Positions 166-21,494 of a DNA stretch of 39,008 bases are shown piece after piece. A model generated the notes under the pieces. The model worked only from the letters and a program-made list of their open reading frames with translations. It ran no database searches and had not been told where the DNA came from. Position numbers and translations under genes: made by a program. Position 1 is the stretch's first letter, and each line of letters begins with the position of its first letter. The DNA comes from Bacteroidaceae bacterium. GTDB taxonomy: Bacteria > Bacteroidota > Bacteroidia > Bacteroidales > Bacteroidaceae. Where the stretch lies: contig JAFYMW010000060.1 of the NCBI GenBank assembly GCA_017548165.1, positions 1-39,008 of the forward strand, in the 5' to 3' direction.

Positions 166-198
166 TTAAAAAGGTGCGTCCCGTGAGGAACGCACCTT
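166..198 (-). terminator. First rho-independent terminator after the distal susD-like gene
   Basis: Arms AAGGTGCGT (171-179) and ACGCACCTT (190-198) form a perfect 9-bp stem with a 10-nt loop. Read on the minus strand, the stem is followed by five T residues (complement of 166-170 and the edge of the stem). The hairpin starts 28 nt after the stop codon of the SusD-like gene, which is the expected place for intrinsic termination. Confidence 0.8.
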
Positions 199-225: not shown

Positions 226-2583
226 TTAACGGTTGCTGTTGTCAGGGAGGGGAAGGTACCAGTTCTTGATGTTGGTTTCCAACTCGCTTGCCCATTCAGT
301 ATTCTCGCCACGAGCCTTAATCTTATCGGCCATGAACTTACCAGGATTGTCGCGACGGCTAGCAACACGCATCAAGTCGAAGAAACGGTTACCCTCGAAT
401 GCCAACTCAAGACCAGCTTCGTCGAGAATCAACTCCTCAATGGCCATCTGTACGAGACCCTGATAGCTGGGATCATAGATTTCCTGCTTGGTGAGTTCTG
501 TATAGCCATTAGCCTTGAGCTTGAGGTTGATCTGGTCAACAAAGTTGTATACACTACGCTTCTCGTTGTACATCAACAAACCACAGCCCTTCTGATGGAT
601 ACCACGAACAACGTACTCGTTGGGAGTGGGTGACTTGGGGTAGTTGGTGGTATTCAACGCAGTTTCTTTCAAGAGGGGGAAGTCCTTAACCCAACCTACA
701 GGCAGATCCTGCTTGCCTTCGAACTGACCCTTGTTGAAGTCCAACCAAATCAAGCCCTGGCTCTTCTCCCATTCATCCTTGCTGATGTAGTCACAAACAA
801 CGTTGTTCATCGTAGGCTGGAAGTTGGCATACTCAATAACCTCGCTCTTGATGTAGCTTTCAAAGTGTGCCTGAAGTTGATCAGCGGGGATGGTGTCAAA
901 GTGAGCAGGTGCCTCGGCCTTGATAGCCTCTACGAAAGCTGCAATATTATTATTGTACTCGGTGCTGTCGTAGTCGGGACCAGTGATAACACACAACTCG
1001 TCTTTCTCTTCCCAGTTTTCAGGAAGGATGATTGTGGTGTCCTTCTGGTTACCTTCAGCATCGGTGTAGGTACCAGTGTATTCATAATGTACGCGTGCTG
1101 TTTTTACAGCGAAATCGCTTTCCTCGCTGGGCAACCATTCTGTATTCTTGGTAAGACCGTTCTTCAAGATGGCAAAAGCGTAACCAGGATAACCTGCACG
1201 GTTCAAAGCCTCTGCAAAGCGCAGCCATACCATGCTCTTGCGGTATACCATGGGGAATACGGTGCTGTAGCCAACCTTGGGATTCTGCTTCATGATGTAG
1301 CGCTCGGTCTTGATCTCGTCGATGTAGTAATCGCCAGAGTTGAAGCGGCTGATGTAGCCTTCGCCATTGCTGGCAGCAATACCGCGAGCATCACCTACAG
1401 AGTCAAGCACAACAAGTGCTGCTTTGGTTTCGTCTTCGATATAGGTAAAGTCGGAAACATGATAAGCCTCGAACTTCTGTGACAAACGCAGACTATCGTA
1501 ACCAGCGCTAGGACCAAGCTGACGCTCCCAGTTCTGTTCCAAACGGATGGTGGCACGTGCCAAAGAGTCGTTACCAGTCTTCTGAGTGATAGTAGCCTTG
1601 AAACCATAGAGGTCGTTCACACCACGCTGTACTGTACCCCACAGAATGTTTGTACTTGAGGGAATAGAGGTGATGGCTTCCTTGCTCTTGCTGGTCTCGT
1701 CAACTTCGTTCCAGGGAGTACCGTTGTTGAACACCATGGGATTTGTCTCGCCCTGAGGAAGGTAGGCATAGCTGAAGTAGTCGGTAGGAATAGCACCGCC
1801 ATACTTCTTGTGATCAAGATACTCATAGTAGTATTGTGCTGCCTTTTCGTATTGGTCGCCCATGAGGTAGATGTCGGCCAGAACAAGAGATACGGGGAAC
1901 ATCATCTTGGTAGAGTGACATACCTTGGTGGTGTAGCCATACTCATTGTACTGGGGCCAGCCCCACTGCTCCTCAACACGGTATGCAGTCTGTAGTCTTG
2001 TCTCCAACTGCTGCCAAAGGGTCTTGGCATTAACGCGGTTAGCCTTGGAGTCGAAAGCCTCAATCTCGTTAGTGCTGAGCATAGGTTCGAGATAGAAGGG
2101 AACGTCGCCATAGTTGACAACCAACTGCATGTACACCCATGCACGGATAGCCTCTACCTGTGCATACTCGCGGAGCATATACTTTTCGCCATCGGTCTTC
2201 TTGATGGTGGTATCAACCTTTGCTAGATATGCATTACATGAGTTAATCACGTGATAGTAGTCGCTTACCTTCAAGTAGCGGTTTGCACCGTCCTTGATAT
2301 TCTCTGTATCGCCATTCAAACCGAAAGACAGAATAGCATTTACACTATCGGTAGTGAATTCACCACCATCGATGAGGTCACCACGGCACTCGCCAAGGAT
2401 GACATAGCGCTCGCCAATGTTCTGCAGACTCTTGAGAATACCCCAATAAGAATACAGGGTATCACCAGCAACTTCGTAGGAGTGACGGTTGCTGTCTGAG
2501 GTCAGCATGTCTTCGCAAGAGGTGGTGGCCATGCTCAGCCCCAAACAGAGGCTGAGAATGGTTATAATTGATTTGTTCTTCAT
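226..2583 (-). CDS. SusD/RagB-family outer-membrane lipoprotein, unusually long (785 aa)
   Basis: This is a surface-exposed nutrient-binding lipoprotein that should cap the adjacent SusC-type channel. The signal peptide ends in a lipobox (ATTSC, Cys23). The N-terminal TPR-like SusD core is visible as the KVSDYYHVINSCNAYL segment (about 105-120) and the EAIRAWVYMQLVVNYGDVPF segment (about 144-163). The C-terminus carries the family's ELAFEGNRFFDLMR-type motif and ends in a WYLPLP-like segment. At 785 aa it is longer than the usual 500-650 aa; the extra length seems to lie in the region of about residues 490-660. It begins 8 nt after the SusC gene and is the last gene of the operon, with terminators directly downstream. 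The ligand cannot be deduced from the sequence. The family call is firm. Confidence 0.93.
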   Translation of the reverse strand: MKNKSIITILSLCLGLSMATTSCEDMLTSDSNRHSYEVAGDTLYSYWGILKSLQNIGERYVILGECRGDLIDGGEFTTDSVNAILSFGLNGDTENIKDGANRYLKVSDYYHVINSCNAYLAKVDTTIKKTDGEKYMLREYAQVEAIRAWVYMQLVVNYGDVPFYLEPMLSTNEIEAFDSKANRVNAKTLWQQLETRLQTAYRVEEQWGWPQYNEYGYTTKVCHSTKMMFPVSLVLADIYLMGDQYEKAAQYYYEYLDHKKYGGAIPTDYFSYAYLPQGETNPMVFNNGTPWNEVDETSKSKEAITSIPSSTNILWGTVQRGVNDLYGFKATITQKTGNDSLARATIRLEQNWERQLGPSAGYDSLRLSQKFEAYHVSDFTYIEDETKAALVVLDSVGDARGIAASNGEGYISRFNSGDYYIDEIKTERYIMKQNPKVGYSTVFPMVYRKSMVWLRFAEALNRAGYPGYAFAILKNGLTKNTEWLPSEESDFAVKTARVHYEYTGTYTDAEGNQKDTTIILPENWEEKDELCVITGPDYDSTEYNNNIAAFVEAIKAEAPAHFDTIPADQLQAHFESYIKSEVIEYANFQPTMNNVVCDYISKDEWEKSQGLIWLDFNKGQFEGKQDLPVGWVKDFPLLKETALNTTNYPKSPTPNEYVVRGIHQKGCGLLMYNEKRSVYNFVDQINLKLKANGYTELTKQEIYDPSYQGLVQMAIEELILDEAGLELAFEGNRFFDLMRVASRRDNPGKFMADKIKARGENTEWASELETNIKNWYLPLPDNSNR

Positions 2584-2591
2584 ATTTGTTA

Positions 2592-5500
2592 TTACAGGTT
2601 AAGTGTGACACCAAAGTTGAAACTACGACCGCTGGGGATTCTGCCAACGTCGACACCCTGGTACATTGTGCCATTCTGGGCGCTGGTCTCGGGATCGGTA
2701 CCGAGGTACTTGGTGAGGCAGAATACATCGTTGGCCTCGCCCCATACCTTAACACCATGCAACCAGTTGTTGTGGTAAGGTACGGTATAGGTGAGACGTA
2801 CGTTCTTGAGCTTAAGGTAGCTGCCATCCTCAATCCAACGACTGCTCATACGCTCGTTCTCTACATAACCAAGATTGTTGGTGAAGCATGCACGGGGGAT
2901 AGTTGTAATCTGACCTTCATGAACCCAACGACGTGCCATGGTTGTTGTCTGGTTGTAGGTGGTATTACCTGCCTCGAGACGTGAACGCTGGTAGTTGTAG
3001 ATGTCGTTGCCCAAGCTATACTTGAAGTTGATATCCAACTGGAAGTTCTTCATGGTCATGTTGGTGAAGATATTACCGTAGATGTCGGGGGTGGCATTGC
3101 CAAGAGCTACCTTATCGCTCTCGTCAATCCAACCGTCACCATTTTGGTCAACAAATGCCATGTCGCCAGCACCGAACTCGCGGTAGCTACCAACTACGCC
3201 AGTATAATAACGGAGCTTGCTGGGAGCACCGAAGGCTGTTGTTGCCTGACTAGCTTCTGCCTCAGTAGCATATACACCAGTACCGCTGGGGTTGTTGTTG
3301 TTAACTTCCCAACCATAGAAAGTACCTGCGCTATAGCCAACAGCAGTGAGAACATTGCTCTTGCCGTATACGCTTGATGTGTAACCGTGAATTACCTCGG
3401 GAGTACCATACTGCTTGCCATCAGCGTCGCGCATGTAAAGCTCGATGGTGTTGTCCTTAGAAACGGGCAGAGCTGTAACCTCGTTGGTGTAGTGACCAAG
3501 GGTTGCGCCCAACTGCCACTTGAAGTTCTTTGCATTTACCAAAGCACCGTTGAACTTGAATTCAACACCCTTGTTGGTCATCTCACCTTCGTTGGTCCAG
3601 AAGTCAGTAATACCAGAGTAGTAGTACTGGTCTGAGAGGTCGCGCATAGAGAGCATGTTGCTGGTCTTGTTGCTGAACAAGTCAACACGTGCATTCAAGC
3701 GGTTGTTGAAGAATGAACCTTCTACACCAATATTGAACTTACGTACGGTTTCCCACTGAAGTTCGCTGTTAGCGATATTGCTTAGGTACTTACCGAATAC
3801 GTTCTCGAACATCTGGGCTGTTTCCCAATATGTACGTGATGCGTAGTAGTCAAGGTTGTCGTTACCGTTGATTTCTGCACCAAGAGTGAGCTTCAAATAG
3901 TTAACATTGCGAGAGGGCTTGAACCATTTTTCGTTGGTCAAGATCCAACCCAACTGCAATGATGGGAAGAGGCCCCAACTTACACCTGCTGCGCGGAATC
4001 CGTCCTTGGTGTGTGAACCGAAACGGCTACTAGCCTGTGCACTGGCACTGAACTCAGCGAAATAACGGTTGGCATAGTTGTAGTTAGCGTGCAAATAGTA
4101 TGCCATGTCCTTCCAGTTGTCGTTAACACCGCTTGAGCTGATGTATTGCAAGCTCTTTGAGATGTTGGGCAACTTATCGTTCTCGTTGTTGTAACCGTTC
4201 AAGTAGGTGTAGCTATAGTTGTAAGAGTTCAAACGCCAACCTGCGAATGCGTCGAAGGTGTGGCTACCCCACTGATGACCATATTCAATACGGAAATCGT
4301 TGTTGATAGTGGTTTGCTTGGTAAACTGGCTCTTCAACACTGATGTAATCTCACCCTGGTCCTGAATCAGGTAAGGAGTTGTACCATTGATGGGAAGGAA
4401 GTACATCTCGTTGTTACGGTTCAGACTGAAGTTGAATCGGTCAGAGATGGCCAGGTCCTTGGTGATCTGGTACTTAGGACGTACATTGATGTTGATCTGG
4501 CTCATTTCGGCGTAGTTCTTATTGTTGCCACGACCGTTTTCAAGAATCCAGTAGGGGTTGCGTAGTACCTCGTTAACCTCGGGCAAGTGCTGTGAGAACA
4601 TGAAAGGGTTCTTTACATACTCGCTCTTGGTAGAGGAAGCAGCATACTTACCTGCCCAGTCCTGTGTGAGCTTCAAACTTGAATGTCCGTTCTCGTCTGT
4701 GTCTACATAGTAGCTATAGGGGCTGATGAAAGGTGCCTGAACCAAACCAAGTACGTTGACAGAACCGATGTTCTGTTTTGCATAGCTCTCGCTCCAACCA
4801 TTGTCCAGAATATTGTATGCTGTCTGGTTGTAAGAGAAGTCCAACTCGGTATTGATCTTGTTGCTGATACTGATGTCGGTGTTGAAGCGAAGATTCAAAC
4901 GGTTCATGTCGTTGTTCTTCATTGTGCTCTGAGAGTTGGTATAACCCAAAGACAAAGCATACATACCTACATCGTCACCACCTTCTACGCTGATCTTGTA
5001 GTTCTGAGTGGCAGCTGTGCGATACATGCCATCCTGCCAGTCAGTGTTGTTGTTGTATACGTTGCGGTAGAAGTTGCTGGGGCTTTGGTCAAGGAAAACG
5101 AATGAGTTGAGCTTGCTCTCGTTCATATCCCTGATGGTAGAAATCAAGTCACCAAGGTAGGTGGTATACTGAGGACCATCCATGACGCTAATCTTCTTGG
5201 GCATCAATTCTACACCACCATAGATGCGAGCATTAATCTTGGTTGCCATGCTCTTACCACGCTTGGTATTGATGATAATCACACCATTGGCACCTTTAGC
5301 ACCATAGAGGGCTGTACCGTTCTTCAGTACCTGAATGCTTTCTACTGTCTCAGGATCAAGACCAGCAAGTACGTTGTTGTAATAACCCTCGTGCTGAGCT
5401 ACACGGTCGTACTGCATGTCGATCATGTTACCATCCAGAATCACCAATGGCTGTGCATCAGCGTTGAGGCTGTTGATACCACGGATGTTCATATATGCGC

Positions 5501-6050
5501 CCTGAGTGGGAAGACCATTCTTCTTGATAATATTGATGTCACCAGCCAACTTGTTCATCATGTCGGTCTCAATGCTCAAACTGCTGGTCTCTTCCAACTC
5601 CAAAGTGTTCTGGGCAGTAATCTTGTTACCAGTTCCGTAGAATGCACTGAATGCGGTGCTCATCAACTCAATGTTGGTACCTTCCTCGTTGATAGCAATC
5701 TGTAGAGGATTGTATTCGGGAGCGTAAACATAGAGTGTGTTGATGAAAACGGGAATATTCACCTCGTATGTACCATCTTCATTGGTAAGGGTAGAGTAGC
5801 GGTTCATACCCAATGCCTGAACGCGTACACCACCCATGGGGGTACCTGTAGCACTATCGATGACACGGCCTGTTACAACGCGTGTCTCGTGCTTGGGAGC
5901 GTTTCTCTTGATTTTGCTTACCTGTGCAGTCTGAGTTTCCTGTGCTTCTTGAGCGTAAGCAGAATTGATGCCAAATGCTGCAAGTGCCAAGAAACAGAGA
6001 CCCACGCGGTGCGCTTTGCTCATAATGTTGTTACTTATTGTATTTTTCAT
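2592..6050 (-). CDS. SusC/RagA-family TonB-dependent outer-membrane receptor (1152 aa)
   Basis: This is a TonB-dependent transporter that imports a ligand handed over by its SusD partner, powered by the TonB-ExbBD system. The signal peptide ends near AYA/Q at residue 34; Met10 is an alternative start that leaves a similar signal. A carboxypeptidase-regulatory-like (CarboxypepD_reg) beta-sandwich follows at about 57-130. The plug domain lies at about 150-265 and has the SusC signatures RGINSLNADAQPLVILDG and LYGAKGANGVIIINTKRGK. The rest is a 22-strand-type beta-barrel ending in GVTLNL. It pairs with the SusD-like gene 8 nt downstream and follows two FAS1 lipoproteins. It is not a close duplicate of the other SusC in this operon: signal, linker and barrel sequences differ, so the two transporters probably take different ligands. 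Substrate unknown. Confidence 0.95.
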   Translation of the reverse strand: MKNTISNNIMSKAHRVGLCFLALAAFGINSAYAQEAQETQTAQVSKIKRNAPKHETRVVTGRVIDSATGTPMGGVRVQALGMNRYSTLTNEDGTYEVNIPVFINTLYVYAPEYNPLQIAINEEGTNIELMSTAFSAFYGTGNKITAQNTLELEETSSLSIETDMMNKLAGDINIIKKNGLPTQGAYMNIRGINSLNADAQPLVILDGNMIDMQYDRVAQHEGYYNNVLAGLDPETVESIQVLKNGTALYGAKGANGVIIINTKRGKSMATKINARIYGGVELMPKKISVMDGPQYTTYLGDLISTIRDMNESKLNSFVFLDQSPSNFYRNVYNNNTDWQDGMYRTAATQNYKISVEGGDDVGMYALSLGYTNSQSTMKNNDMNRLNLRFNTDISISNKINTELDFSYNQTAYNILDNGWSESYAKQNIGSVNVLGLVQAPFISPYSYYVDTDENGHSSLKLTQDWAGKYAASSTKSEYVKNPFMFSQHLPEVNEVLRNPYWILENGRGNNKNYAEMSQININVRPKYQITKDLAISDRFNFSLNRNNEMYFLPINGTTPYLIQDQGEITSVLKSQFTKQTTINNDFRIEYGHQWGSHTFDAFAGWRLNSYNYSYTYLNGYNNENDKLPNISKSLQYISSSGVNDNWKDMAYYLHANYNYANRYFAEFSASAQASSRFGSHTKDGFRAAGVSWGLFPSLQLGWILTNEKWFKPSRNVNYLKLTLGAEINGNDNLDYYASRTYWETAQMFENVFGKYLSNIANSELQWETVRKFNIGVEGSFFNNRLNARVDLFSNKTSNMLSMRDLSDQYYYSGITDFWTNEGEMTNKGVEFKFNGALVNAKNFKWQLGATLGHYTNEVTALPVSKDNTIELYMRDADGKQYGTPEVIHGYTSSVYGKSNVLTAVGYSAGTFYGWEVNNNNPSGTGVYATEAEASQATTAFGAPSKLRYYTGVVGSYREFGAGDMAFVDQNGDGWIDESDKVALGNATPDIYGNIFTNMTMKNFQLDINFKYSLGNDIYNYQRSRLEAGNTTYNQTTTMARRWVHEGQITTIPRACFTNNLGYVENERMSSRWIEDGSYLKLKNVRLTYTVPYHNNWLHGVKVWGEANDVFCLTKYLGTDPETSAQNGTMYQGVDVGRIPSGRSFNFGVTLNL

Positions 6051-6083
6051 TGTTCTTTGCTTTATGTGATTGACATCTTCAAA

Positions 6084-8054
6084 TTACTCGGCCTCCTTAC
6101 TCTTAAGAATGATTTGGTCGATGTTGAATGTACGAGAGTAACCCTTCTTGGTATCTGCAGTCTTGACATTGCTCTTGAGGTGGAGAATGGGATAAGCCTG
6201 AAGAATGTTCTTGTAAGATACGGGGAATTCAACATCTGTCAAAACAGTGATGGTATCAACTTTCTCACCGCTGTATTCGATGTCCTCGCTAACCAACTTG
6301 TTCTGCTTGGTGTACTTGAGGTCAGAACCGCCAATAAGACTTTCATCCCAATAGTAGAGTGTACATGTCAAACGGTTCTTCAAAATGGTCTCGGGGATTG
6401 TAGCAGTGTCTTCGCTGTTTTCATACCAACGGGGAACCAATACAATCTGTACGTCGTACTTGCCACTCATTACATCGGCAGAACCCTGCTTGCTGCCTTC
6501 CAAACGGAATGCCACTTCTGGGTTGGTAGAACTTGAAGATGCTGCAATCTGAGCGTAGTTTTGCTCGCTGCAACGACCATACTGGTCAATCCAAGCTCTG
6601 GCGGTAGAGTTGCTGATATCATACTGGGTAAGGTTGGTAGATGATGCCTTCTCGTACATTGTAAACATGTGAGTATCAAGTTCGATGTTGCGCTTCCAAT
6701 AGTCGCGGGGGAAATTCCACTTATCGGTCACTATGGCATAACCATTACTCATCTCCTTGGTTTCTACTACACCAGCGCCTTCAAACAACCAATCCTTCTC
6801 CCATACCAAAGTCTTGACACCGTCAATTACTTCATATACGTCACGGATGGTGTCACCTACTGTTGTCAACAGGAATTCGCAGTTCTTGTAACCACCATTG
6901 ATGAAGCTTTCTTTGGTCCATACTTCACCATTGTGCTGAGGCTGGAGGTTGATGTTGAATACCAAAGGACGAATAATGTCCATTTCGATGTTAACGAGTT
7001 GCAGAGAGTCTATGGTCTCATAACCCATACCATTTGTGTAACTCTTTCTAGCACCGAAAATGTCGCTAGTCTTTGCTTTGGTAGTAGGAATGTTCACCTT
7101 ATCCATTCTGGGATATGTGGTAACATAGTTGTAGAAGGGCTTGAACTTCTCTACTGCACTTGACCATGCCAGGTCGGTGGGAACAATCATAACGAAGGCA
7201 GAGTCCTCGGTGTTGATCTGTGCCTTGAACATGTTCAGGTTGTTCATCCATGCGTCGTCAGAGTCGATACCTGTGGGGTTTTCCCAGTCTTTGTCGAACA
7301 TCATGTTGTCCAAACGATAAACACTGTCCACATAGGTGGGGTTACCATTCTCGTCGGGCAAACCTTCGATACTCTTTGATTCCTCGAAGTAAACGGTGTC
7401 GCGCTTCACAAGGTACTTGCTGAAGGTCTCTACCTCACCGCTGAACTTGATATACTCATAGAGGTTGTAGAAGAATTCGTTCTTTTCTCCAATCACATGC
7501 ATGAGACCATTGCGAGCGCCAATATTCTTCTCAATAACCTGAGTTTTCTGGATCAACCCCTCATCGTAGTTGAGGCTTGCGAACTTGTCGTTAATCAACT
7601 TGATAGTCTCTTTGCCAGTATTGGTCATGCTCTTGCGGAACAGTGCCATGTGATTGCCAAGGAACTGCTGCTGCAGATTGTAACCATCGTTCAAAGCCAT
7701 TTCCTCATACTTTGCCCAATCTTCGGCTGTGAGAGCCTCGTTGGTGGGTACCCATACTGTGACGGGAGTGTTACCATTGAGAATGTCTTTGAAGGTGTAG
7801 TACAAAGTGTCGCCTGTCTCAGCGATGGAGTAGGCAGGATGGTGTTCATCGCGATAGAAATTGGCCTTGCTAACGATTGAGCGGAAGTTGCTCAAATCTT
7901 CGCGAGTTTCCAGGAGTTCCCATAATGTTTCACCTGGTGTATGTACGCACTCAGGCTCGTAATGGATGTCCCATGTGTCGGTGCATGAGGGGACTGCCAC
8001 TAAGGCAGTTCCCATCATCATTGCTCCGAGATATTTCTTTATTCCTTTTTTCAT
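6084..8054 (-). CDS. FAS1 (fasciclin) domain lipoprotein, two FAS1 units (656 aa)
   Basis: This is a probable outer-membrane, surface-exposed lipoprotein. The signal peptide ends in VAVPSC (lipobox Cys24). The first FAS1 unit spans about residues 40-190: TLWELLETREDLSNF, the core strand VTVWVPTNEAL (99-108), and the closing motif NGLMHVIGE (182-190). A second, more diverged unit follows, with its core at FVMIVPTDLAW (287-297). The last ~170 residues look like a beta-rich module ending in TFNIDQIILKS, which may be a ligand-binding jelly roll. FAS1 domains are known mainly as adhesion or interaction modules; no catalytic function is implied. It lies between another FAS1 gene and a SusC gene, in a position where ordinary PULs carry surface glycan-binding proteins, so a SusE/F-like accessory binding role is an inference. 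The 33-nt gap to SusC suggests co-transcription. Confidence 0.85.
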   Translation of the reverse strand: MKKGIKKYLGAMMMGTALVAVPSCTDTWDIHYEPECVHTPGETLWELLETREDLSNFRSIVSKANFYRDEHHPAYSIAETGDTLYYTFKDILNGNTPVTVWVPTNEALTAEDWAKYEEMALNDGYNLQQQFLGNHMALFRKSMTNTGKETIKLINDKFASLNYDEGLIQKTQVIEKNIGARNGLMHVIGEKNEFFYNLYEYIKFSGEVETFSKYLVKRDTVYFEESKSIEGLPDENGNPTYVDSVYRLDNMMFDKDWENPTGIDSDDAWMNNLNMFKAQINTEDSAFVMIVPTDLAWSSAVEKFKPFYNYVTTYPRMDKVNIPTTKAKTSDIFGARKSYTNGMGYETIDSLQLVNIEMDIIRPLVFNINLQPQHNGEVWTKESFINGGYKNCEFLLTTVGDTIRDVYEVIDGVKTLVWEKDWLFEGAGVVETKEMSNGYAIVTDKWNFPRDYWKRNIELDTHMFTMYEKASSTNLTQYDISNSTARAWIDQYGRCSEQNYAQIAASSSSTNPEVAFRLEGSKQGSADVMSGKYDVQIVLVPRWYENSEDTATIPETILKNRLTCTLYYWDESLIGGSDLKYTKQNKLVSEDIEYSGEKVDTITVLTDVEFPVSYKNILQAYPILHLKSNVKTADTKKGYSRTFNIDQIILKSKEAE

Positions 8055-8123
8055 ATATTCTAAATGAATAGTGAAATGTTTAGGTATTAAATCTCTTTTG
8101 TTATCTAAATTTGTATTTTCTGA

Positions 8124-10352: not shown

Positions 10353-10372
10353 TTTATATTCCTCCTCCTTGA

Positions 10373-12187
10373 TTATCTGTCATACTTAGACTTGTTCCAT
10401 ACAGGGTTCTGTGTGAAATTGTATCCACCTGCACGATATGCCTTACACTCCATGTAGTAGATAGGACTGTACATACCCCAAAGGGTCTCGCAACGGCTCT
10501 GTGCCAACTCCTGACCGGGGAAGCTCTTAAGGAAGTCGTTATATGCTGCATCCTTGCCTTCCACAGCATCGTCGCTAGCACTGAGACGCTCTGCATAACG
10601 AACGAGGTCGAACCAACGCTTGCCTTCGCCGATAAGCTCAATCTTACGTGTGTTCATTACATCCTTGATGTCACCATTGGTATAGATGTCGTAGTCTTTC
10701 TTGACAGAAACGTCGTTGTCTACGTTACCACCATTAACTACGTCAACCCACCAACGACGGTTGACCATACGAAGAAGCTGTAGACATACCTTCTTGTTCT
10801 CTGCTGCGTCAACGCCGAGTTTGGCAAGACATGCACGAGCCTCTGCATTCTGGAGCAGAACGTCGCTCAAACGGTAGATAATCCAGTTGTTGTAGTCCTC
10901 AACCTCGACCTTGGTATAGATCTCGACTTCGGTGGTACCGAGGTTGTTCTTGAAGATGGGATCAGCCTTAGCCCACTTGATACAGTAGGGGTCGAATGAG
11001 TTGTCCATACCTTCGATGAACTGCCAACCGCTGAACCAGTAACGTGCATCGTTGTTCTTCTCGGGCTTGGTCAGTGTTGATACCAACTGAGCGCCTTCAG
11101 ATGCACCCCAGAAAGCATTAACAGCACCATTGCTACGGCTGTCATTCTTGCTGAACTGCAACTCAAAGATGCTTTCGTATGAATTGCCCTTGCCGAAGAT
11201 CTGGTTGTATGCATTGAGGTCAATGAAACCACGGTTGGCTTCCTCAACATTGTTTCTATACATGAAACGGATCTCCTTGCCGTCGAAGGTGGGAGCACCA
11301 CCCCAACTCATGTAGTCGTTGGAGTTCTTGATACCAAAGTTCTTGGTCTCTTCTTCGAACTGTTCTGCCAACTTTGCAACAGACTTTTCACTATAGAGGA
11401 TACATTTCTGATAGTCGTCAGCCACCATTTCCAGAGTGATAGTGGTGTCGTTTTGCATTCTACCCTCACGCAGACTAGCACGCCACAGGTACATATCGCT
11501 CAAGAGTGCATAAACTGCAGTGTTGGTGATTTGACCCTTTGTCTCTTTCTTGTCAACAAAACGGTTACGAGCCTGACCTTTGATAGATTCAACATCTGCA
11601 ATCAAACTGTCCATCACATCCAATACGGGCAACTGGGGGAAGTACTCCACGTCTGTATCGCTATTGATAATCTTGGTTGTGTAGGGAATGCTCTTAAATG
11701 CACGTACCAAATAGAAATAGGCCAGTGAGCGCATTGTCACCATTTCGGCTTTCATCTGGCGCCATTCTGCGGCAGTGAACTGCTTGTCTCTTTCAAGAAC
11801 CTTCTCGCCATTGTAAAGCACCTTGTTGCAATAGCCGATTGCCGAATACATTCCGCTCCAATCGTATTCGGACCATGTGGTATCGATATTGGCCTGCATG
11901 ATCTGGGCATACTTGTTACGGTTGGTCTGTGAACTGCTTTGGTTGCTGGGCAAAGTATAAATGTCCGCAGCTCGTAGGTCACCCCAGACAATCATATTGC
12001 TTACTTGCTGGCTCATATTCTTGTATACGGCATAGCGTACACCATCCAGGTCGTTCTTGTCTTCCCAGAAGTTCTCTTCAACAATCTGGGTTTGAGGCAA
12101 AACTTCCAGCCAATCGCTACATGAGGTCATGGAGAGTGACATCATTGCCAGAAGCGAAGTTGTTTTGATTATATTTTTTGTTTTCAT
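10373..12187 (-). CDS. SusD/RagB-family outer-membrane lipoprotein (604 aa)
   Basis: This is the nutrient-binding lid for the SusC encoded just upstream. The lipoprotein signal ends in SMTSC (Cys23). The typical SusD start SDWLEVLPQTQIVEENFW is followed by the TPR core; the segment AEMVTMRSLAYFYLVRAF is near residues 138-155. The C-terminal signature TRKIELIGEGKRWFDLVRYAE is strongly diagnostic of SusD/RagB. Its length of 604 aa is ordinary for the family. It begins 12 nt after the SusC stop, as is usual for the pair, and is followed after 20 nt by a FAS1 lipoprotein gene in the same direction. Substrate unknown; glycans are usual for the family, but some RagAB-type pairs import peptides. Confidence 0.95.
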   Translation of the reverse strand: MKTKNIIKTTSLLAMMSLSMTSCSDWLEVLPQTQIVEENFWEDKNDLDGVRYAVYKNMSQQVSNMIVWGDLRAADIYTLPSNQSSSQTNRNKYAQIMQANIDTTWSEYDWSGMYSAIGYCNKVLYNGEKVLERDKQFTAAEWRQMKAEMVTMRSLAYFYLVRAFKSIPYTTKIINSDTDVEYFPQLPVLDVMDSLIADVESIKGQARNRFVDKKETKGQITNTAVYALLSDMYLWRASLREGRMQNDTTITLEMVADDYQKCILYSEKSVAKLAEQFEEETKNFGIKNSNDYMSWGGAPTFDGKEIRFMYRNNVEEANRGFIDLNAYNQIFGKGNSYESIFELQFSKNDSRSNGAVNAFWGASEGAQLVSTLTKPEKNNDARYWFSGWQFIEGMDNSFDPYCIKWAKADPIFKNNLGTTEVEIYTKVEVEDYNNWIIYRLSDVLLQNAEARACLAKLGVDAAENKKVCLQLLRMVNRRWWVDVVNGGNVDNDVSVKKDYDIYTNGDIKDVMNTRKIELIGEGKRWFDLVRYAERLSASDDAVEGKDAAYNDFLKSFPGQELAQSRCETLWGMYSPIYYMECKAYRAGGYNFTQNPVWNKSKYDR

Positions 12188-12199
12188 TATCTGTAGATA

Positions 12200-15100
12200 T
12201 TAGAAACCGAGATTTACACTGCACTGAAATGACTTTGAAGGTGGAACCTTTGCACCGTCGGTTGCGGGATTGTAACCGCCAGAGCTGATTTCAGGGCTCA
12301 GACCAGAATACTTGCTCAATGTGAAGATATTATTCACTGAAGCAGAGAGATTCAGGTTCTTGATACCGCACTTCTTCATCCAACCGAACTTCTTGGGATC
12401 CATGCTATATCTCAACTGGATGTAGCTGAACTTGAAGTAGTCACCATTTTCAACGAAGCGGTCGTTGGGTAGTGAGTTGTAGCTATATGCACCAGTACCC
12501 TGTGTGTTGATTGCACGTGGAATTTCGGTGATGTCACCATTCTTACGCCAACGCCATGTTACTGCATATGACTGGTTGTTGTTGTTGGTCATGCTCTCGT
12601 AGGTCTGACGAGCGAGGTTGACAATCTGACCACCCATACGGAATTGGAAACCAAGGTTCAAGGTAAGTTTGTCGTAGAAGAATGTTACGCTACCACCACC
12701 ATTGAGCTTGGGGTTTGAGTTGCCAAGATAAACCATATCATAACGGTCAATCTGACCATCGCTGTTAACGTCTTCATACATAACGTCACCGCCATTGAAC
12801 TGGTAGCGTGTGCCACCATCGTTGTTGTAGCAGTAGTACATAGCCAAAGGATTGCCCTTAGCATCAGTCAGCATATTGCCGTTTGCATCGAATGCAATGG
12901 GGCAGGTTGAGTTTTCGCCACGACGCTGAGCTGCAGCTGCAGTGTTGATGGGGTTACCCTTCATGTCGCGACCAGTAGCTGTGTGCTTGTACTGGAGGAA
13001 CTCTGTGTAATCCTTTGCAGGACGTGTCTTACCGTCAACAACGATGGTCTCGTTGTAGCCATAGTCGCTCCAACTCTGGATGGTGTGACCGTTGTGGTCG
13101 TAGTCGTAGCGGTAAACACCCTTGTAGCGCAGACCATAGATAGAGCTTAGAGCATTGCCAATCTGTACACGGCTCTGGTAGCTCAGGTTGCTGGGCTGGT
13201 AGTTCTCTGAGCCATTGAGGTTTTCAAGAACAAGGCTGTTCAGTTCCTCTACACTATTGAAGTTCTGAGCAAAGTTAACAGAAGCTCTCATGCTGAACTT
13301 GCCAACCTTTGCAAATCTGTCGGTATTGATGTAAAGCTCCCAACCTCTGTTGGACATTACACCACCATTGATACATCCGAGAGAAGAGAAACCGTTGGCA
13401 GAAGGAATACGCAAACCGTGGTTAAGCATGTCTGTAGTCTTTCTGTGGTAGTATGCGAGGTCAGCGGTGAACATGTTCTTGAGGAAACCAACGTTAAGAC
13501 CAAGGTTGGTCTCGGTGTTTTTCTCCCAACGTGCATTGTGCAGTGACAGGTTTTCGGGGATGATGACGGTGTGGCCATTGTAGACACCGCTGCTGCTGTA
13601 CTTGTTGTACTGAGGGTAGCTACCGATGTTACCGTTACCTGTGTAACCCCATGATGCCTTGACACCCAACATTGAGAGCCAGTCTTCTGACCACTTCATC
13701 CACTTCTCGTCAGAGATGTTCCAACGTGCATTGAAACCAGGGAAGCGACCGAATCTGTTGCTGCCACCGAAGTTAGCGTTACCATCAATAGTTAATGATG
13801 CGTCAAGAATGTACTTGCCGTCATAAGCATAGTGAGCCTTGAAGTAGAATCTCTGCCAACGTGATTCTCCGCATGAAGCGCTTGCGCTGTAGAGCATACC
13901 AGGAGAGGTAGGATCCTGTACACCATCGGGAACGTTCCATATAGAGGTGTTCTGGCTGCTGTAGCTGCTGGTACCCATACGCATGTTAGCCTCGGCGCTC
14001 AACTTGTGCTTGGTGTTCTTGAATGCACTGTAGAAGTACAAACTATGGCTGGTGCTGAAGCTCATTGTCTTGCTCTCAGAATTGGTAACCTGGTTACGCT
14101 CGTTGTTGTAACCACCCTTACCATTGCTACCACCATACATCCAGGGCATGTTGATAACCTCTGAGGGAGTGTATGAATCTGTGCTACTGTTGTTGATACC
14201 CAAAAGTACATCACCACGATAGTCAAGACGCCATTCGTCGTCAGACTTACCTAAAAGCTTGTATGAAATACTCAACTTGGGAGAAAGGTCGTAGTTTTTC
14301 TGCTTGTCTTCCTTAAGGTTGGCGTATGCGATAGCGTTGCCGTTACCGAACATGTCGCGCAATTCCCAAGAGGTGTGCAAACCATCGTTTTCTATGCCCT
14401 TGCTATAGCTTTCGTCTGTTGCCAAAGGAAGCATGTGGAAATATTCGGGGTTGCCGTTCTCGTCGTATACCATGTTACCATTGGTGTCGTGAGCATAGAT
14501 GGCCATGTTGGGCATTGCCTTCCATGCCTTGGAGTTAGCTGCGTTAGCAACCATGTTGTTGTGACGTGTACCGAATACCATGTTAATGTCGGTTCTCACG
14601 GTAATACGGTCACTTACCCAATAGTCCAATGCTGTAGAGGTTGTGAAACGCTCAAAGTCCTGGTTGATGTTAGTACCATGCTCCTTGTCGTAAGAGGCAC
14701 TGATATAGAAAGCAGCCTTTTCACCACCACCATTGAGGTTGATGTTGTACTTATGGCTCTTACTCATACGTCTTACAGCATTCACCCAGTCGGTATTCTT
14801 GTTGTAGTTGTGGAAAATACTCTCATAGGTATTGTTGTAGTCCAACTCAAGAATAGACTTAGAGGTGTTGGTGGGGTTGAAGTAAGATTCCTTCATATAC
14901 ATGGTGTACTCGTCACCATTAAGCATCTTGTAACCTTCGGGCTGCCAGTTGCCAGCGAACTTGTAGCTGAAGTTTACTGCAGTGGGACCGCGCTTACCAC
15001 GCTTAAGTGTAATCTCGATAACACCATTAGAACCGTCGGTACCATACTTTGCTGTAGAAGCGGCATCCTTCAATACGGTAATCTTTTGGATATCCTCGGG

Positions 15101-15775
15101 GTTTACGTTCAAAAGTTCAGCGAACTTCTCCTCATTGTCAAGGTCGTTTACGTCAACTTCTCCAGACAAATCTGTAGCTTTCTTGGGGTCACCGTTAACA
15201 ACAATCAGGGGCTGACCGTCACCAGCGTTCAATGTGCTGATACCGCGGAGACGCATTGTAGTACCTGCACCAGCGTTACCAGAGTTGGCAACGATGTCCA
15301 AACCTGCAATTTGACCTTGAAGAGCCTGGTCAACTGATGTAAATGCCAAACCTTCTACATTAGACATGTCGAAGCTCTGTACGGTACCACCATACTCACG
15401 TTCAGGAATCTCAAGACCAGTTGTTCCTGCAAGTTTCTTGCCTTCAACGATAAGGTCTTTCATGGTCTTGGAATCGTCCTGCATGGTAATCTTGAACACA
15501 GTCTTGCCAGCAGTGGCTACGGTAACAGTCTTATAACCCATGTAAGAGATAACAAGTTTACTCTTGTCGTCCTTCAAAGTCATGGTAAAGTTACCGTTGA
15601 AGTCGGTTACCGCTGCATTCAGGATACGATTGTTCTTGTCGACCTCCTTTACATTGGCACCGATAATCACATCGATATCGTCCGATACTGTACCGGAGAT
15701 ACGGCGCTGTGCGTTAGCTGGAAGAGCCAGCATTATAACTGCCCACAGCAAAAATAACTTGATGATTTTATTCAT
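12200..15775 (-). CDS. SusC/RagA-family TonB-dependent outer-membrane receptor (1191 aa)
   Basis: The cleavable signal peptide ends at ANA/Q (about residue 23). A CarboxypepD_reg-like domain follows (about 24-100) with the family pattern VTDFNGNFTM ... LVISYMGYKT. The plug (about 110-265) carries DQALQGQIAGLDIV, MRLRGISTLNAGDGQPLIVV and ITVLKDAASTAKYGTDGSNG, all SusC hallmarks. The remainder is a beta-barrel that ends in VNLGF, with the terminal aromatic typical of outer-membrane proteins. The position 11 nt after the large FAS1 gene and 12 nt before susD indicates tight co-transcription. It should form a SusC2D2-type complex with the downstream lipoprotein and take up an unknown ligand using TonB energy. 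No N-terminal signalling (STN) domain is visible, so it does not itself look like a sigma-regulator transducer. Confidence 0.96.
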   Translation of the reverse strand: MNKIIKLFLLWAVIMLALPANAQRRISGTVSDDIDVIIGANVKEVDKNNRILNAAVTDFNGNFTMTLKDDKSKLVISYMGYKTVTVATAGKTVFKITMQDDSKTMKDLIVEGKKLAGTTGLEIPEREYGGTVQSFDMSNVEGLAFTSVDQALQGQIAGLDIVANSGNAGAGTTMRLRGISTLNAGDGQPLIVVNGDPKKATDLSGEVDVNDLDNEEKFAELLNVNPEDIQKITVLKDAASTAKYGTDGSNGVIEITLKRGKRGPTAVNFSYKFAGNWQPEGYKMLNGDEYTMYMKESYFNPTNTSKSILELDYNNTYESIFHNYNKNTDWVNAVRRMSKSHKYNINLNGGGEKAAFYISASYDKEHGTNINQDFERFTTSTALDYWVSDRITVRTDINMVFGTRHNNMVANAANSKAWKAMPNMAIYAHDTNGNMVYDENGNPEYFHMLPLATDESYSKGIENDGLHTSWELRDMFGNGNAIAYANLKEDKQKNYDLSPKLSISYKLLGKSDDEWRLDYRGDVLLGINNSSTDSYTPSEVINMPWMYGGSNGKGGYNNERNQVTNSESKTMSFSTSHSLYFYSAFKNTKHKLSAEANMRMGTSSYSSQNTSIWNVPDGVQDPTSPGMLYSASASCGESRWQRFYFKAHYAYDGKYILDASLTIDGNANFGGSNRFGRFPGFNARWNISDEKWMKWSEDWLSMLGVKASWGYTGNGNIGSYPQYNKYSSSGVYNGHTVIIPENLSLHNARWEKNTETNLGLNVGFLKNMFTADLAYYHRKTTDMLNHGLRIPSANGFSSLGCINGGVMSNRGWELYINTDRFAKVGKFSMRASVNFAQNFNSVEELNSLVLENLNGSENYQPSNLSYQSRVQIGNALSSIYGLRYKGVYRYDYDHNGHTIQSWSDYGYNETIVVDGKTRPAKDYTEFLQYKHTATGRDMKGNPINTAAAAQRRGENSTCPIAFDANGNMLTDAKGNPLAMYYCYNNDGGTRYQFNGGDVMYEDVNSDGQIDRYDMVYLGNSNPKLNGGGSVTFFYDKLTLNLGFQFRMGGQIVNLARQTYESMTNNNNQSYAVTWRWRKNGDITEIPRAINTQGTGAYSYNSLPNDRFVENGDYFKFSYIQLRYSMDPKKFGWMKKCGIKNLNLSASVNNIFTLSKYSGLSPEISSGGYNPATDGAKVPPSKSFQCSVNLGF

Positions 15776-15786
15776 GGCTTATGTTT

Positions 15787-18700
15787 TTATCGGATTGCGA
15801 ATCTCTGAAGGTACTGACGTGCCTCAGATTGATCTTCAAATGTGGGATATCTGCCGTCCACAAGGGCTGCATGGTTCAAAACACCATTTACAAGATGGAT
15901 AACAGAGTAGCTGGTTGCATCCACGGTCTTACCGTTCATGGACTGGTCTTTTACCTTGCCGTTACATTCTCTGTCACAAGCCATGATGTTCTTCAAGTCG
16001 CAACCATTAACAGTGTACTGTGCCTTAATCCACTCACCAGTGCCGGTGTTGTCCTTAATTTGCAGCATAGTCTCGCCACCGTCCTTGACGCGTTGAACCA
16101 AAATCTTACCAAACAGACCGCTCTCGCTGTCATAACTGCTGTTGAACATCTCTGCATTGAGTTCAGACTTGTCGGCATACAAACTGTTGTCGGCAAAGTG
16201 TGTACGGATGAAATTGGTCAAATAGGTAATCTTAGCCTGAATACGTGCACTATCGGCAGCATTGGTCAAGTAACCCTCTTCATCTGCAGAGTTTTCAAAG
16301 TCAGCCTGAATGCTTTCCCATGTGGGCAAGCCCTGCTCGATAGCAGCCAAAACAGCTTCGTTTGTGGGAGCGAATACAGTGTAGTGATAGTTGTCAAAGA
16401 ACTGTACATTGTAGTCAACAGCATTGTTGTCTACGAAAGTCAAGAACTTGTTAACAGCATTGGTCAAAGCCTTCTTACCTTCAGAGGTGTTGGGGTCGTA
16501 CTTGGGGTTGGTTTCGTCAACCAAACCAGACTTAACGATCAAATCCCAATCAGCCTCGTTGCAGAGTCTGAAGAACTGGGCATAGGGGTTCTCGTTCTGA
16601 ATAGAGTCTGCATTATAGTCGGTGGGCTCGCCCTTAGCACCACGCTTCATGCCTGACATCACGCTGAATACGCTTCGAGATGCAGGAACCAGAGGTGCGT
16701 CGAGGGTGAAGGTGCAACCATTCTTAAAGTCACCCTTCTCAATGACGTTACAACGCAGAATACCAGGATTGGTGTGTGTCAGGCCTTCACGCTCGTTCTC
16801 GATTTGGAAGCCGCCCTGAGCGCTGATTACACCATTTTCATCGCGTTTAACCTTGATACCCATACCATTCTTAGACAAATAGTACTCGTCCTCGTCTGTG
16901 TTGATGGTGTTCACACCACTCTCGTGTACGATGGTGTTGTGCTCCAACATCTGGCGCAGACGGTTGACAATTTCGTCAGTATTGGTTGACTGAGTGTTGT
17001 AGGCGTTACCGATAGTACCAGTGTTAACATCAAAGTTTCTAAGTACGTAGGGGTATTTAGTACTGTTCTTAGTAGCGAAGGGGAAGCTACCTGTTGATGT
17101 GTAAGCAAAGCCCATTACACGGGGGAGCTTACTGGTGAAACTCATTGGGTCGTAATAGTACTGGAGAGCCTCGTCGTTGGGCATGAAGAAACTGAAACGA
17201 CTCTGCATGGCCTTAAGGTATGCATAGTAGTTCAGACCCATATAGTTGCTACCATCAAAGTCGCTATAGATAGCCCAACGCATGATGCGGTTGGTAGAAC
17301 GGATGTAGGCAGGAGTAGCTACACAGTTGAAGTCTGAAGGTACGAATACATTATTCATAATATATACGGCACCATTACAAGCTACAAATACAGTATCGAT
17401 GGTACCACCTTCCTTAGTGAGCCTTGAATCGCGCTCCTCAAAGATCTGCTCCTGAGTAACAGCCTCACGAATAGTGGTCATCTTACTGGGTACTGAAGCA
17501 GTGAACTTGTCTACCATACCCTGGTTAACCATTGCCTGAACAATCTTCAAAGGAATCTGGTCGATGTCTTCATAAAGAAGTTCCAGATTCTCTTTGGTGT
17601 ATTGGCCTATGTGGTTGTCTAAAGTGTACTCTTCCAAGAATGCCTTACCACCACCTTCGTTGAAATACCACAGCATCTGATCGTCGCTGGGAACGAACAT
17701 GGCACCCATGTCGCTCTCTTCTGTACGACCGATGGGGAAGTAACCATTCCATCCTGGGTCGAACTTAAGGATAGCTTCACCAGTGTTGGCAAACAACTTA
17801 CCTCTTTCGTCGTTCTTCAACTCAACATCAGCGTCTCTGGTAGAACCGAATGTTCTCTTAGAATAGTAACGCTTGGTGTAGAGTGTGTCGGTTACGAGGA
17901 AGTTGGGGTCCAACTTGGAATACAGATTGCCTACGGTCTTGTTCTGGAAAGGAACAGAGAAACGATCAAGCATATGGCTGTAGATGTTGGTGCGGCCATT
18001 GGTGCGGATAACCTCAGCCATGTTTGCCAAAGGTACCAAAGGCTTGGCAGTCATATTGATATAACCATTCTCACAAACGATGTCGGCGCTATCAAGATGT
18101 GCATCGTAGATGTGTACATCGCTGGTGATACGCTCCTGGCCCATGATGATGCGGAAGTCCTCGTCGGTGATGAGCTCCTTGGCCATGTATTCGTTGGTGA
18201 AGTGAATCATCATTGACAATGAACTGTCGAGAACCATGTAGATAGAATCGTAGCCGAGAAGACCACCATTACGGATGCGGCTCCACTGGTCAACTTCAGG
18301 AGAGGCCTTGCCTTCCTCGGTTGCTTGCTTGTCGGCTGTCCAATAAGTCTTGGGCAGGTCTGTAACAGCAATACGTGTTACGGTGTCAACCACTTCCACG
18401 TCGGTCTTTCTGCGAAGGAACTCACCGCGGATGGGATTCTTGCCAGAACTGCTGGAGAGGTTCTCCATCACGATGGCATTGTTAAGCATGCTGGTGTGCA
18501 ACAGCAATTTCTTTTGGTTTTTTGACAAGGTCTCGTAACTCTGGGCATAGTGCCAAGGGTTGGACTGGGGGAGAGTCTTGTTGTACTCAAAGAAATTCTC
18601 CCAAGCCTGGTCGTTTGCGACAAACAGGGTCTTAGAACCTGTTCTTGACAAGATCTGTACCAATGAACCTTCTTCGGTGTCGCCCGAGTTGACATCGGGG

Positions 18701-18900
18701 TCGGCAATCAGGCGCAGGTAGTTCTTGTAAGTTCCGTCGCTCTCAAGAGTCTCATAGATGCTAGAGTTGAGCCATACTGGTTTTGCATCGTCCAGTAGGT
18801 ACTCGTCCTGGCATGCAGAGAAGCTTCCGCCGAGAGCTAGCATGCAAGCGGCGAAAGCCACATGCTTGCTACATTTGCTTAAACGGTTTCTCATACGCAT
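15787..18900 (-). CDS. Large multi-FAS1 (fasciclin) surface lipoprotein, four FAS1 units (1037 aa)
   Basis: This is the first gene of the seven-gene operon. Met3 is an equally good start. The signal peptide ends in GSFSAC (lipobox Cys30). Four FAS1 units are recognised from their core strand: KTLFVANDQAW (90-100), GAMFVPSDDQM (399-409), RFSFFMPNDEA (568-578) and YTVFAPTNEAV (840-850). The last unit closes with YSVIHLVNGVLNHAALVDG (998-1016). Units are about 220-270 residues long, larger than the ~140 of a minimal FAS1 domain, so each carries insertions. A string of FAS1 domains on a lipid anchor resembles extracellular adhesion proteins. Given the SusC gene 11 nt downstream, an accessory binding role for the transporter is equally possible. 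No catalytic motif is seen. Confidence 0.87.
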   Translation of the reverse strand: MRMRNRLSKCSKHVAFAACMLALGGSFSACQDEYLLDDAKPVWLNSSIYETLESDGTYKNYLRLIADPDVNSGDTEEGSLVQILSRTGSKTLFVANDQAWENFFEYNKTLPQSNPWHYAQSYETLSKNQKKLLLHTSMLNNAIVMENLSSSSGKNPIRGEFLRRKTDVEVVDTVTRIAVTDLPKTYWTADKQATEEGKASPEVDQWSRIRNGGLLGYDSIYMVLDSSLSMMIHFTNEYMAKELITDEDFRIIMGQERITSDVHIYDAHLDSADIVCENGYINMTAKPLVPLANMAEVIRTNGRTNIYSHMLDRFSVPFQNKTVGNLYSKLDPNFLVTDTLYTKRYYSKRTFGSTRDADVELKNDERGKLFANTGEAILKFDPGWNGYFPIGRTEESDMGAMFVPSDDQMLWYFNEGGGKAFLEEYTLDNHIGQYTKENLELLYEDIDQIPLKIVQAMVNQGMVDKFTASVPSKMTTIREAVTQEQIFEERDSRLTKEGGTIDTVFVACNGAVYIMNNVFVPSDFNCVATPAYIRSTNRIMRWAIYSDFDGSNYMGLNYYAYLKAMQSRFSFFMPNDEALQYYYDPMSFTSKLPRVMGFAYTSTGSFPFATKNSTKYPYVLRNFDVNTGTIGNAYNTQSTNTDEIVNRLRQMLEHNTIVHESGVNTINTDEDEYYLSKNGMGIKVKRDENGVISAQGGFQIENEREGLTHTNPGILRCNVIEKGDFKNGCTFTLDAPLVPASRSVFSVMSGMKRGAKGEPTDYNADSIQNENPYAQFFRLCNEADWDLIVKSGLVDETNPKYDPNTSEGKKALTNAVNKFLTFVDNNAVDYNVQFFDNYHYTVFAPTNEAVLAAIEQGLPTWESIQADFENSADEEGYLTNAADSARIQAKITYLTNFIRTHFADNSLYADKSELNAEMFNSSYDSESGLFGKILVQRVKDGGETMLQIKDNTGTGEWIKAQYTVNGCDLKNIMACDRECNGKVKDQSMNGKTVDATSYSVIHLVNGVLNHAALVDGRYPTFEDQSEARQYLQRFAIR

Positions 18901-19032
18901 AATTTTTTTGGTTTATTAGATTGTTTTGTATAAATGTTAATTTCTCTAAAATGTTTTGGTCGTGTTGTTTTTAATGGTTCTTTTTTTAAGGCATAGTATG
19001 GGCTTTTGGTTATTAATCATAGATTATACAGA

Positions 19033-19873: not shown

Positions 19874-19945
19874 AGTTATATAGTCTGTAAAATTTTATTC
19901 GATTATTAGGCATTGCATGTCGTTTGCGCAGCCTAAATTGAAGAG

Positions 19946-20893: not shown

Positions 20894-20919
20894 TATTTTT
20901 GTTGTTGATTAAGTGTGGC

Positions 20920-21489: not shown

Positions 21490-21494
21490 GATTT

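What the first reader, a model, noticed from the sequence alone, without database searches (positions are those of the whole stretch)
226..18900. Seven-gene fasciclin-SusCD operon without enzymes or a regulator
Transcription order is FAS1x4 - SusC - SusD - FAS1x2 - FAS1x2 - SusC - SusD, with gaps of 8-70 nt, one candidate promoter and a double terminator. All five non-SusC proteins carry lipoboxes. Ordinary PULs carry glycosidases and a SusR, HTCS or sigma/anti-sigma regulator; this locus has none. FAS1 lipoproteins hold the position of SusE/F-type surface binding proteins. I infer a surface complex in which FAS1 proteins capture a ligand (possibly host matrix protein, mucin or another cell's surface) and hand it to two different SusCD transporters, or an adhesin set using SusCD as a scaffold.
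Basis: partly seen in the sequence, partly recalled or inferred. Interest (0 to 1): 0.75.

Follow-up and report, generated by a model that had tools for sequence, protein, structure and literature searches.

The report
Fasciclin-armed double nutrient-import operon
A gut bacterium carries a seven-gene surface machine, two outer-membrane importers plus three fasciclin-domain capture proteins, whose gene order is kept in distant relatives, where it often sits beside sugar-degrading enzymes, so it is most likely a little-recognised kind of glycan uptake system rather than an adhesin.

Summary
Seven intact minus-strand genes read FAS1 - SusC - SusD - FAS1 - FAS1 - SusC - SusD, with 8-69 nt gaps, one promoter-like box and two terminator hairpins. 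Only the number of FASa copies varies, apart from two cut pieces and two profile misses. Six genes share one history, with no swaps between two paralogous cassettes.

"No enzymes, no regulator" holds for this window only. In some relatives the cassette lies near RG-I lyase, GH10/GH43/GH67/GH115, GH92/GH38 or GH43-like plus GH128-like enzymes, or hybrid two-component regulators. The paralogous form co-occurs with RG-I lyases (32 of 33 genomes).

I read it as a two-transporter glycan uptake machine with FAS1 lipoproteins as surface binders, kept without neighbouring enzymes in the window's sublineage. Its ligand there is open; host sialo/fucosyl-glycans are my leading guess. An adhesin is not favoured. 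Open-access searches found no description.

The parts
15787..18900 (-). FASx4: first gene, 1037-aa lipoprotein with about four FAS1 domains carrying insertions; predicted surface glycan-binding protein
   Evidence: profile hits to periostin/TGFBI; domain support uneven
12200..15775 (-). SusC1: TonB-dependent transporter with CarbopepD_reg_2 and plug domains
   Evidence: 59% mean column identity in relatives
10373..12187 (-). SusD1: SusD/RagB lipoprotein
8124..10352 (-). FASa: FAS1 lipoprotein with an unassigned conserved C-terminal domain (about residues 490-742); missing in 13 and duplicated in 2 of 30 same-genus type-1 loci
6084..8054 (-). FASb: FAS1 lipoprotein with an unassigned C-terminal domain
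2592..6050 (-). SusC2: second TonB-dependent transporter, told apart from SusC1 by profile in the relatives too
226..2583 (-). SusD2: second SusD/RagB lipoprotein, 785 aa
19034..19041 (-). TAnnTTTG box (Bacteroidetes -7 consensus, recalled), candidate promoter of the operon
171..198 (-). first terminator-like hairpin, 12 pairs, followed by T's
84..122 (-). second terminator-like hairpin followed by GTTTTTT
   Evidence: read by hand; not in the list
18901..19945 (.). 1,045-nt spacer between miaA and the cassette; in 8 of 20 other same-genus genomes a GH43-like and a GH128-like gene lie just upstream of the first gene (one further ORF between in L180 and in L190)

Best explanation
This is a dual-transporter glycan capture and uptake cassette, here an orphan of a widespread and ancient PUL core. 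Steps shown by sequence: seven genes in one likely transcript; two TonB-dependent SusC barrels each followed by a SusD; three FAS1-domain lipoproteins; an order and inheritance as one unit kept across the class. Steps inferred: all five lipoproteins sit on the cell surface. The FAS1 proteins act as surface glycan-binding proteins (the SusE/F role) and concentrate a branched or charged polymer or its fragments. They pass chains to the two SusCD pairs, which are not interchangeable and import them by the TonB-powered lid mechanism known for SusCD (recalled). In some relatives enzymes and a hybrid two-component regulator lie next door. In the window's sublineage no such enzymes stand at the site, and the cassette holds two of the three SusD_RagB hits in the genome. 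It would take up fragments made by enzymes encoded elsewhere (for instance its own sialidases and GH95) or by neighbours.
For: Order: 74 of 74 fetched loci keep it (30 same-genus type-1, 8 same-genus paralogs, 27 from other genera of the family, 9 from other families); 52 are complete seven-gene copies, 16 lack FASa, 2 have it doubled, 2 have it tripled and are cut after SusC2, 2 have an ORF in the FASb place that the profile misses. Unit inheritance: identity matrices of six genes correlate at 0.78-0.96 over 62 of 68 cassettes; type-1 genes lie closer to other-genus type-1 than to own-genus type-2 in 184 of 184 gene comparisons; the SusC1+SusC2 tree agrees (no support values printed). Enzyme or regulator neighbours: PL11 and GDSL/SASA esterases in G740; GH28, SASA, GH115 and GH2 in G107, GH88 in G353, an FGGY kinase and an aldolase-dehydrogenase in G133; GH10, GH43 and GH67 upstream with HTCS and GH115 downstream in G687; GH92 and GH38 in G650, HTCS in G637; GH43-like in 9 and GH128-like in 8 of 20 same-genus sites. 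Paralog type 2 tracks RG-I lyase PL11: 32 of 33 with it against 5 of 27 without. A review passage puts two SusCD pairs and the binder BT4167 in the B. thetaiotaomicron RG-I PUL (PMC8002723). Window genome: 3 SusD_RagB hits, no HTCS (Reg_prop), GH10 or PL11 hit.
Against: No binding, transport, expression or structure data. FAS1 domains elsewhere bind proteins and other ligands besides glycans (recalled; review passages). The enzyme neighbours differ in substrate, so a shared ligand class is inferred. Flanks were Pfam-scanned only for genes that I selected, and some copies show only housekeeping neighbours by eye (window, G302, G609, several same-genus sites, type-2 copies next to panB). The type-2/PL11 link is among related genomes and is not phylogenetically corrected. 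The loci were chosen because they match the first gene and lie on long contigs. Whether BT4166/BT4167 are FAS1 proteins was not checked.
Confidence: 0.7

Rival explanations
1. Adhesin set: FAS1 lipoproteins attach the cell to matrix, mucin or other cells, and the SusCD pairs are scaffold or passengers.
For: FAS1 proteins are widely linked to adhesion; two papers read bacterial FAS1 genes that way (PMC10199937, passages; PMC2668756, passages).
Against: SusC1 and SusC2 are the most conserved members (59% and 58% mean column identity against 31-37% for the five lipoproteins; same ranking for the six genes compared). Some relatives carry glycan enzymes and HTCS regulators next door. FASa is missing in 16 of 74 loci while both SusCs and SusDs stay.
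Confidence: 0.1
2. Importer of peptides or proteins, like RagAB, rather than of glycans.
For: Some SusCD pairs import peptides (recalled); SusC1 matches RagA and BT_2264 as well as other SusC homologs; no CAZymes in the window operon.
Against: CAZyme neighbours in several relatives and co-occurrence of a paralog with PL11; no dedicated peptidase was the best match of any flanking protein that I scanned, but these were selected genes.
Confidence: 0.12
3. A decaying PUL remnant that lost its enzymes and has little function.
For: GH43-like and GH128-like genes stand at this site in some same-genus genomes; no match to the GH128-like protein in the window genome and four near relatives (0 of 5, all incomplete MAGs); a 1,045-nt spacer is there instead.
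Against: All seven ORFs are intact and the promoter-like box and terminators are present; 52 of 61 same-genus genomes hold a type-1-like first gene (at least 39% identity; my count from the list) and 59 of 61 some relative of it; the cassette holds 2 of 3 SusD_RagB hits in the genome. dN/dS was not computed.
Confidence: 0.06
4. Within the glycan reading (odds conditional on it): the window copy serves plant or fungal cell-wall glycans such as pectin, xylan or beta-1,3-glucan, not host glycans.
For: Most enzyme neighbours found in relatives are of families known for plant or fungal wall glycans (substrates recalled); named near relatives come from ruminant and deer guts.
Against: Window genome has no GH10, PL11 or GH128-like match (81% complete), but three sialidase-like matches, one beside a GH95 gene. 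Sialidase relatives are common in the genus (64 of 81), so they are not specific to enzyme-free cassettes.
Confidence: 0.4

Closest known systems
B. thetaiotaomicron rhamnogalacturonan-I PUL, BT4145-BT4183 (PMC8002723, passages read)
   Same: Two SusC/SusD-like pairs (BT4164/65, BT4168/69) with, by locus tag, two genes between them, one of them the RG-I binder BT4167, and a lyase next door (BT4170). A same-family relative (G740) has the full FAS1 cassette beside a PL11 RG-I lyase.
   Different: The passages do not call BT4166/BT4167 FAS1 proteins and I could not fetch that genome. The window has no enzymes or HTCS beside the cassette, and it has a FASx4 gene upstream.
SusCDEF and glycan utilisomes (surface glycan-binding proteins with SusCD; recalled)
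   Same: Lipoproteins encoded beside SusCD in the binder position; TonB-dependent import.
   Different: Binders are FAS1-domain proteins; two SusCD pairs are locked in one cassette; no enzymes or regulator here.
Tandem-SusCD xylan PUL of Segatella copri (PMC11784079, passages)
   Same: Two SusCD pairs in one PUL; a GH10 xylanase neighbour occurs in G687 too.
   Different: The word fasciclin does not occur in that paper's main text; here a FAS1 gene stands before the first SusC and one or more between the pairs.
Periostin and TGFBI (eukaryotic multi-FAS1 proteins)
   Same: Best solved-structure matches by sequence.
   Different: Matricellular animal proteins; similarity only at FAS1 domain level.

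Membership tests
SusC/SusD (RagA/RagB) transporter pairs | SusC with TonB plug and carboxypeptidase-like N-terminal domain | tested here: met
   Plug over cut-off in both; CarbopepD_reg_2 over cut-off in SusC1, below cut-off in SusC2
SusC/SusD (RagA/RagB) transporter pairs | SusD/RagB lipoprotein directly downstream of each SusC | tested here: met
Polysaccharide utilization locus | SusCD with linked glycan-degrading enzymes | tested here: not met
   none in the operon or among the ten genes scanned from 19946 to 29259; a sialidase and a GH95 lie 13-19 kb from the operon on the other strand. Met in several relatives
Polysaccharide utilization locus | Linked SusR, HTCS or sigma/anti-sigma regulator | tested here: not met
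   none among the window ORFs scanned; no Reg_prop hit at E<=0.001 in the genome (a 24-position repeat, so misses are possible). SusR and sigma factors were not sought genome-wide. HTCS found near the cassette in G637 and G687
Surface glycan-binding proteins (SusE/F role) | Lipoproteins encoded with SusCD | tested here: met
Surface glycan-binding proteins (SusE/F role) | Glycan binding at the cell surface | not testable with these tools
   needs protein
FAS1 domain proteins | Match to PF02469 | tested here: met
   three of three over cut-off; 19 of 19 FASa members of A2 at E<=0.01
Bacteroidota BAM complex (BamG/BamH) | BamG is a FadL-like barrel bound to BamA | tested here: not met
   SusC1/SusC2 carry TonB plug domains; BamG is FadL-like in PMC12611786 (passages)
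B. thetaiotaomicron RG-I PUL | Linked RG-I lyase | tested here: not met
   no PL11 (PF21348) match in the window genome, 81% complete

The most novel reading that the evidence does not exclude
A class-wide, previously undescribed kind of SusCD machine: two non-interchangeable SusCD transporters and three FAS1 lipoproteins form one obligate surface complex inherited as a block. In this sublineage it has become an enzyme-free core importer for host sialylated and fucosylated glycan fragments.
Probability: 0.3. Interest if true: 0.8.

Novelty: new variant of a known kind. Interest (0 to 1): 0.6.

Why it matters
SusCD systems are the main way Bacteroidota take up glycans, and their partner binders are often too divergent to recognise. 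A fixed seven-gene cassette with FAS1 binders, traceable across the class, gives a handle on many unannotated surface proteins. It offers a concrete bacterial role for FAS1 domains and raises a testable question: why two transporters are always kept together. The enzyme-free copy in a genome with few SusD hits points to a scavenger life on glycan fragments.

Tried and rejected
BAM-linked SusCD: rejected, since BamG is FadL-like. Plasmid origin: plasmid searches gave only distant SusD and SusC hits, 23-27% identity in the rows listed. Solved structures for the C-terminal domain of FASa: no usable match. Pfam over all 19 members of the FASa alignment: only Fasciclin. Homology between the C-terminal domains of FASa and FASb: none detectable. 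Sigma-70-type promoters: no excess over shuffles; the Bacteroidetes-type box was used instead. Structured RNA: no Rfam hit at gathering scores. GH10 as marker of the window's substrate: no match in the genome. The phylum search also gave two weak FAS1 matches (G125, G303) whose surroundings did not show the cassette. NanU (a sialic-acid-binding SusD) is the only NCBIfam hit of SusD1, at 51 bits against a cut-off of 425, so no weight was given to it. A first gene-order tally lost genes in some loci to overlapping or antisense ORFs; it was replaced by a six-frame tally.
Full report
WHAT IS THERE. The seven genes exist as described. I call them, in order of transcription, FASx4, SusC1, SusD1, FASa, FASb, SusC2 and SusD2. 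Gaps are 8-69 nt. A TAnnTTTG box (Bacteroidetes promoter consensus, recalled) lies 141 nt before the first ATG. It is found within 400 nt of the first gene in 38 of 39 same-genus loci (6.5 expected from dinucleotide shuffles) and before SusC1, SusD1, FASa, FASb, SusC2 and SusD2 at about chance: 0/39, 1/39, 2/27, 4/37, 0/31, 2/29. Two terminator-like hairpins close the unit. One promoter and one transcript is therefore supported by pattern, not by RNA data. All five lipoproteins keep a lipobox-type cysteine that is invariant or at least 90% conserved. The number of FAS1 domains per protein is less firm than the finding says.

HOW WIDE IT IS. FASx4 has a relative in 59 of 61 same-genus genomes and in 1 of 40 genomes outside the genus in that search. 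By my count from its list, 52 of the 61 hold a type-1-like first gene (at least 39% identity), and seven have only the more distant, paralogous kind. With an alignment, 213 of 301 family genomes in 18 of 30 genera match at E<=1e-5 (some matches are weak, and only part was followed). In the phylum, 10 of 395 match, the window included (at most two candidates per genome were scored, so a lower bound). Eight loci from seven of those genomes show the full order; the two weak ones (G125, G303) do not. Named relatives are MAGs, several from deer, buffalo and cattle guts.

GENE ORDER. I fetched 74 loci around such matches, chosen for contig length and spread, so not a random sample. A six-frame profile tally gives the same order in all 74. 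Same-genus type-1: 30 of 30 (15 with seven genes, 13 without FASa, 2 with FASa doubled). Same-genus paralogs: 8 of 8 complete. Other genera of the family: 27 of 27 (20 complete; 3 without FASa; 2 with FASa tripled, the piece ending in SusC2; 2, G664 and G637, with an ORF in the FASb place that the profile does not match). Other families: 9 of 9 complete. FASx4, SusC1, SusD1, FASb, SusC2 and SusD2 evolve together (Spearman 0.78-0.96 of identity matrices, 62 of 68 cassettes; SusD1 gives the lower values). Type-1 genes are nearer to other-genus type-1 than to own-genus type-2 in 31/31, 31/31, 31/31, 31/31, 31/31 and 29/29 comparisons. The cassette is thus an old unit that duplicated before these genera split, and these six genes have not mixed between the two copies. 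Vertical descent alone would also give correlated distances; the absence of swaps is the stronger sign.

FIXED PLACE. In 14 of 20 same-genus genomes with about 10 kb of upstream sequence, miaA lies upstream, usually with lpx genes, as in the window; in 6 it does not. In another genus two copies (G506, G571) lie directly before an lpxD-lpxC-lpxA-miaA-like run (read by eye and by clustering). This looks like vertical inheritance at a core locus, unlike the patchy spread usual for PULs (recalled).

ENZYMES AND REGULATORS IN RELATIVES. I Pfam-scanned selected flanking genes only. Hits: GH28, SASA esterase, GH115 and GH2 in G107, an FGGY kinase and an aldolase-dehydrogenase in G133 (rhamnose-type by my reading), GH88 in G353, all from other families; GH10, GH43 and GH67 just upstream, and HTCS and GH115 downstream, in G687; PL11 RG-I lyase and esterases in G740; GH92 and GH38 with an epimerase and a DHDPS-family protein in G650, GH65 in G664, GH31 in G500 and an HTCS in G637. 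By eye only: rhamnose isomerase in G133, GH28 and an HTCS in G740. In the window's own genus, 9 of 20 sites have a GH43-like gene and 8 of 20 also a relative of the 924-aa protein of L037 just upstream of FASx4. That protein matches solved Glyco_hydro_cc proteins at E 5e-10 (GH128 is the family name as I recall it) and has a weak H-lectin match below cut-off; a relative in G618 passes the PF11790 cut-off. Not all copies have enzymes: G302, G609 and several type-2 copies near panB show housekeeping neighbours by eye, and 11 of the 20 same-genus sites lack the GH43-like gene.

CO-OCCURRENCE. Among 60 same-genus genomes, a type-2 (or other distant paralogous) first gene is scored present in 33, of which 32 have PL11; of 27 without it, 5 have PL11 (Fisher p about 1e-10; for GH10, 30 of 33 against 16 of 27, p=0.006). 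Presence was read by eye from the match list, whose weakest rows were not printed; G027 and G056 rest on partial matches; and the genomes are related, so the p value is only descriptive.

THE WINDOW'S SUBLINEAGE. The window genome (81% complete MAG) has three SusD_RagB (PF07980) hits, two of them in this operon, two GH43 hits elsewhere, no Reg_prop hit, and no GH10 or PL11 hit. The GH128-like protein has no match in it or in four near relatives (0 of 5; present in 7 of the 18 genomes searched). It has three sialidase-like matches; one, at 32344-33921, sits beside a GH95 gene. Sialidase relatives occur in 64 of 81 genus genomes, so this is not special to the sublineage, but the near-cassette copy has close relatives on the cassette contig in G044 and G049.

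INTERPRETATION. The anatomy and the neighbours fit a glycan importer in which FAS1 lipoproteins take the surface-binder role, and which the window lineage keeps without local enzymes. The layout given for the B. thetaiotaomicron RG-I PUL (two SusCD pairs, locus tags of two genes between, one a stated RG-I binder; PMC8002723, passages) would match six of the seven positions, but I could not check those proteins. The ligand in the window is not settled: host sialo/fucosyl-glycans fit its enzyme set best, while plant or fungal wall glycans fit the relatives best.

LITERATURE. Full-text searches for fasciclin with SusC/SusD, SusD, SusCD, Bacteroidetes lipoproteins, Prevotella PULs or rhamnogalacturonan, and for FAS1 domain with TonB, returned none to three papers each. 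I read passages of three of them (PMC10199937; PMC6032426; PMC2668756); the others were seen in the listing only. None of what I saw describes such a cassette. Only open-access PMC papers are held, so it may be described elsewhere. Passages were also read of PMC8002723, PMC11784079, PMC3878776 and PMC12611786. Luis et al. 2018 is recalled and not held.

LIMITS. No structures could be predicted. Whole-genome results rest largely on incomplete MAGs.

Noticed in passing
window 32344-37662: A sialidase relative (best solved match exo-alpha-sialidase, E 8e-67) followed by a GH95 enzyme whose C-terminus looks like a T9SS sorting domain (by eye); two further sialidase-like matches are in the genome.
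   Followed up: partly
L037:6881-9655: A 924-aa GH128-like enzyme with a weak H-lectin-like match and a T9SS-like tail (by eye), paired with a GH43-like gene upstream of the cassette in 8 of 20 same-genus sites.
   Followed up: partly
L072-L079: A second, paralogous cassette in the same genus, in some genomes next to panB (by eye), that tracks RG-I lyase presence.
   Followed up: yes
L170, L160, L171: In G650 the cassette lies near two GH92 and one GH38 gene and an N-acylglucosamine epimerase/DHDPS-family pair, suggesting a host N-glycan version.
   Followed up: partly
L114, L115: FASa is tripled in tandem in two genomes of genus g237.
   Followed up: no
window 38145-38543: ORF with a match to the C-terminal part of putative ATP-dependent helicase RecG and a winged-helix domain, near the window end; possibly a fragment.
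   Followed up: no
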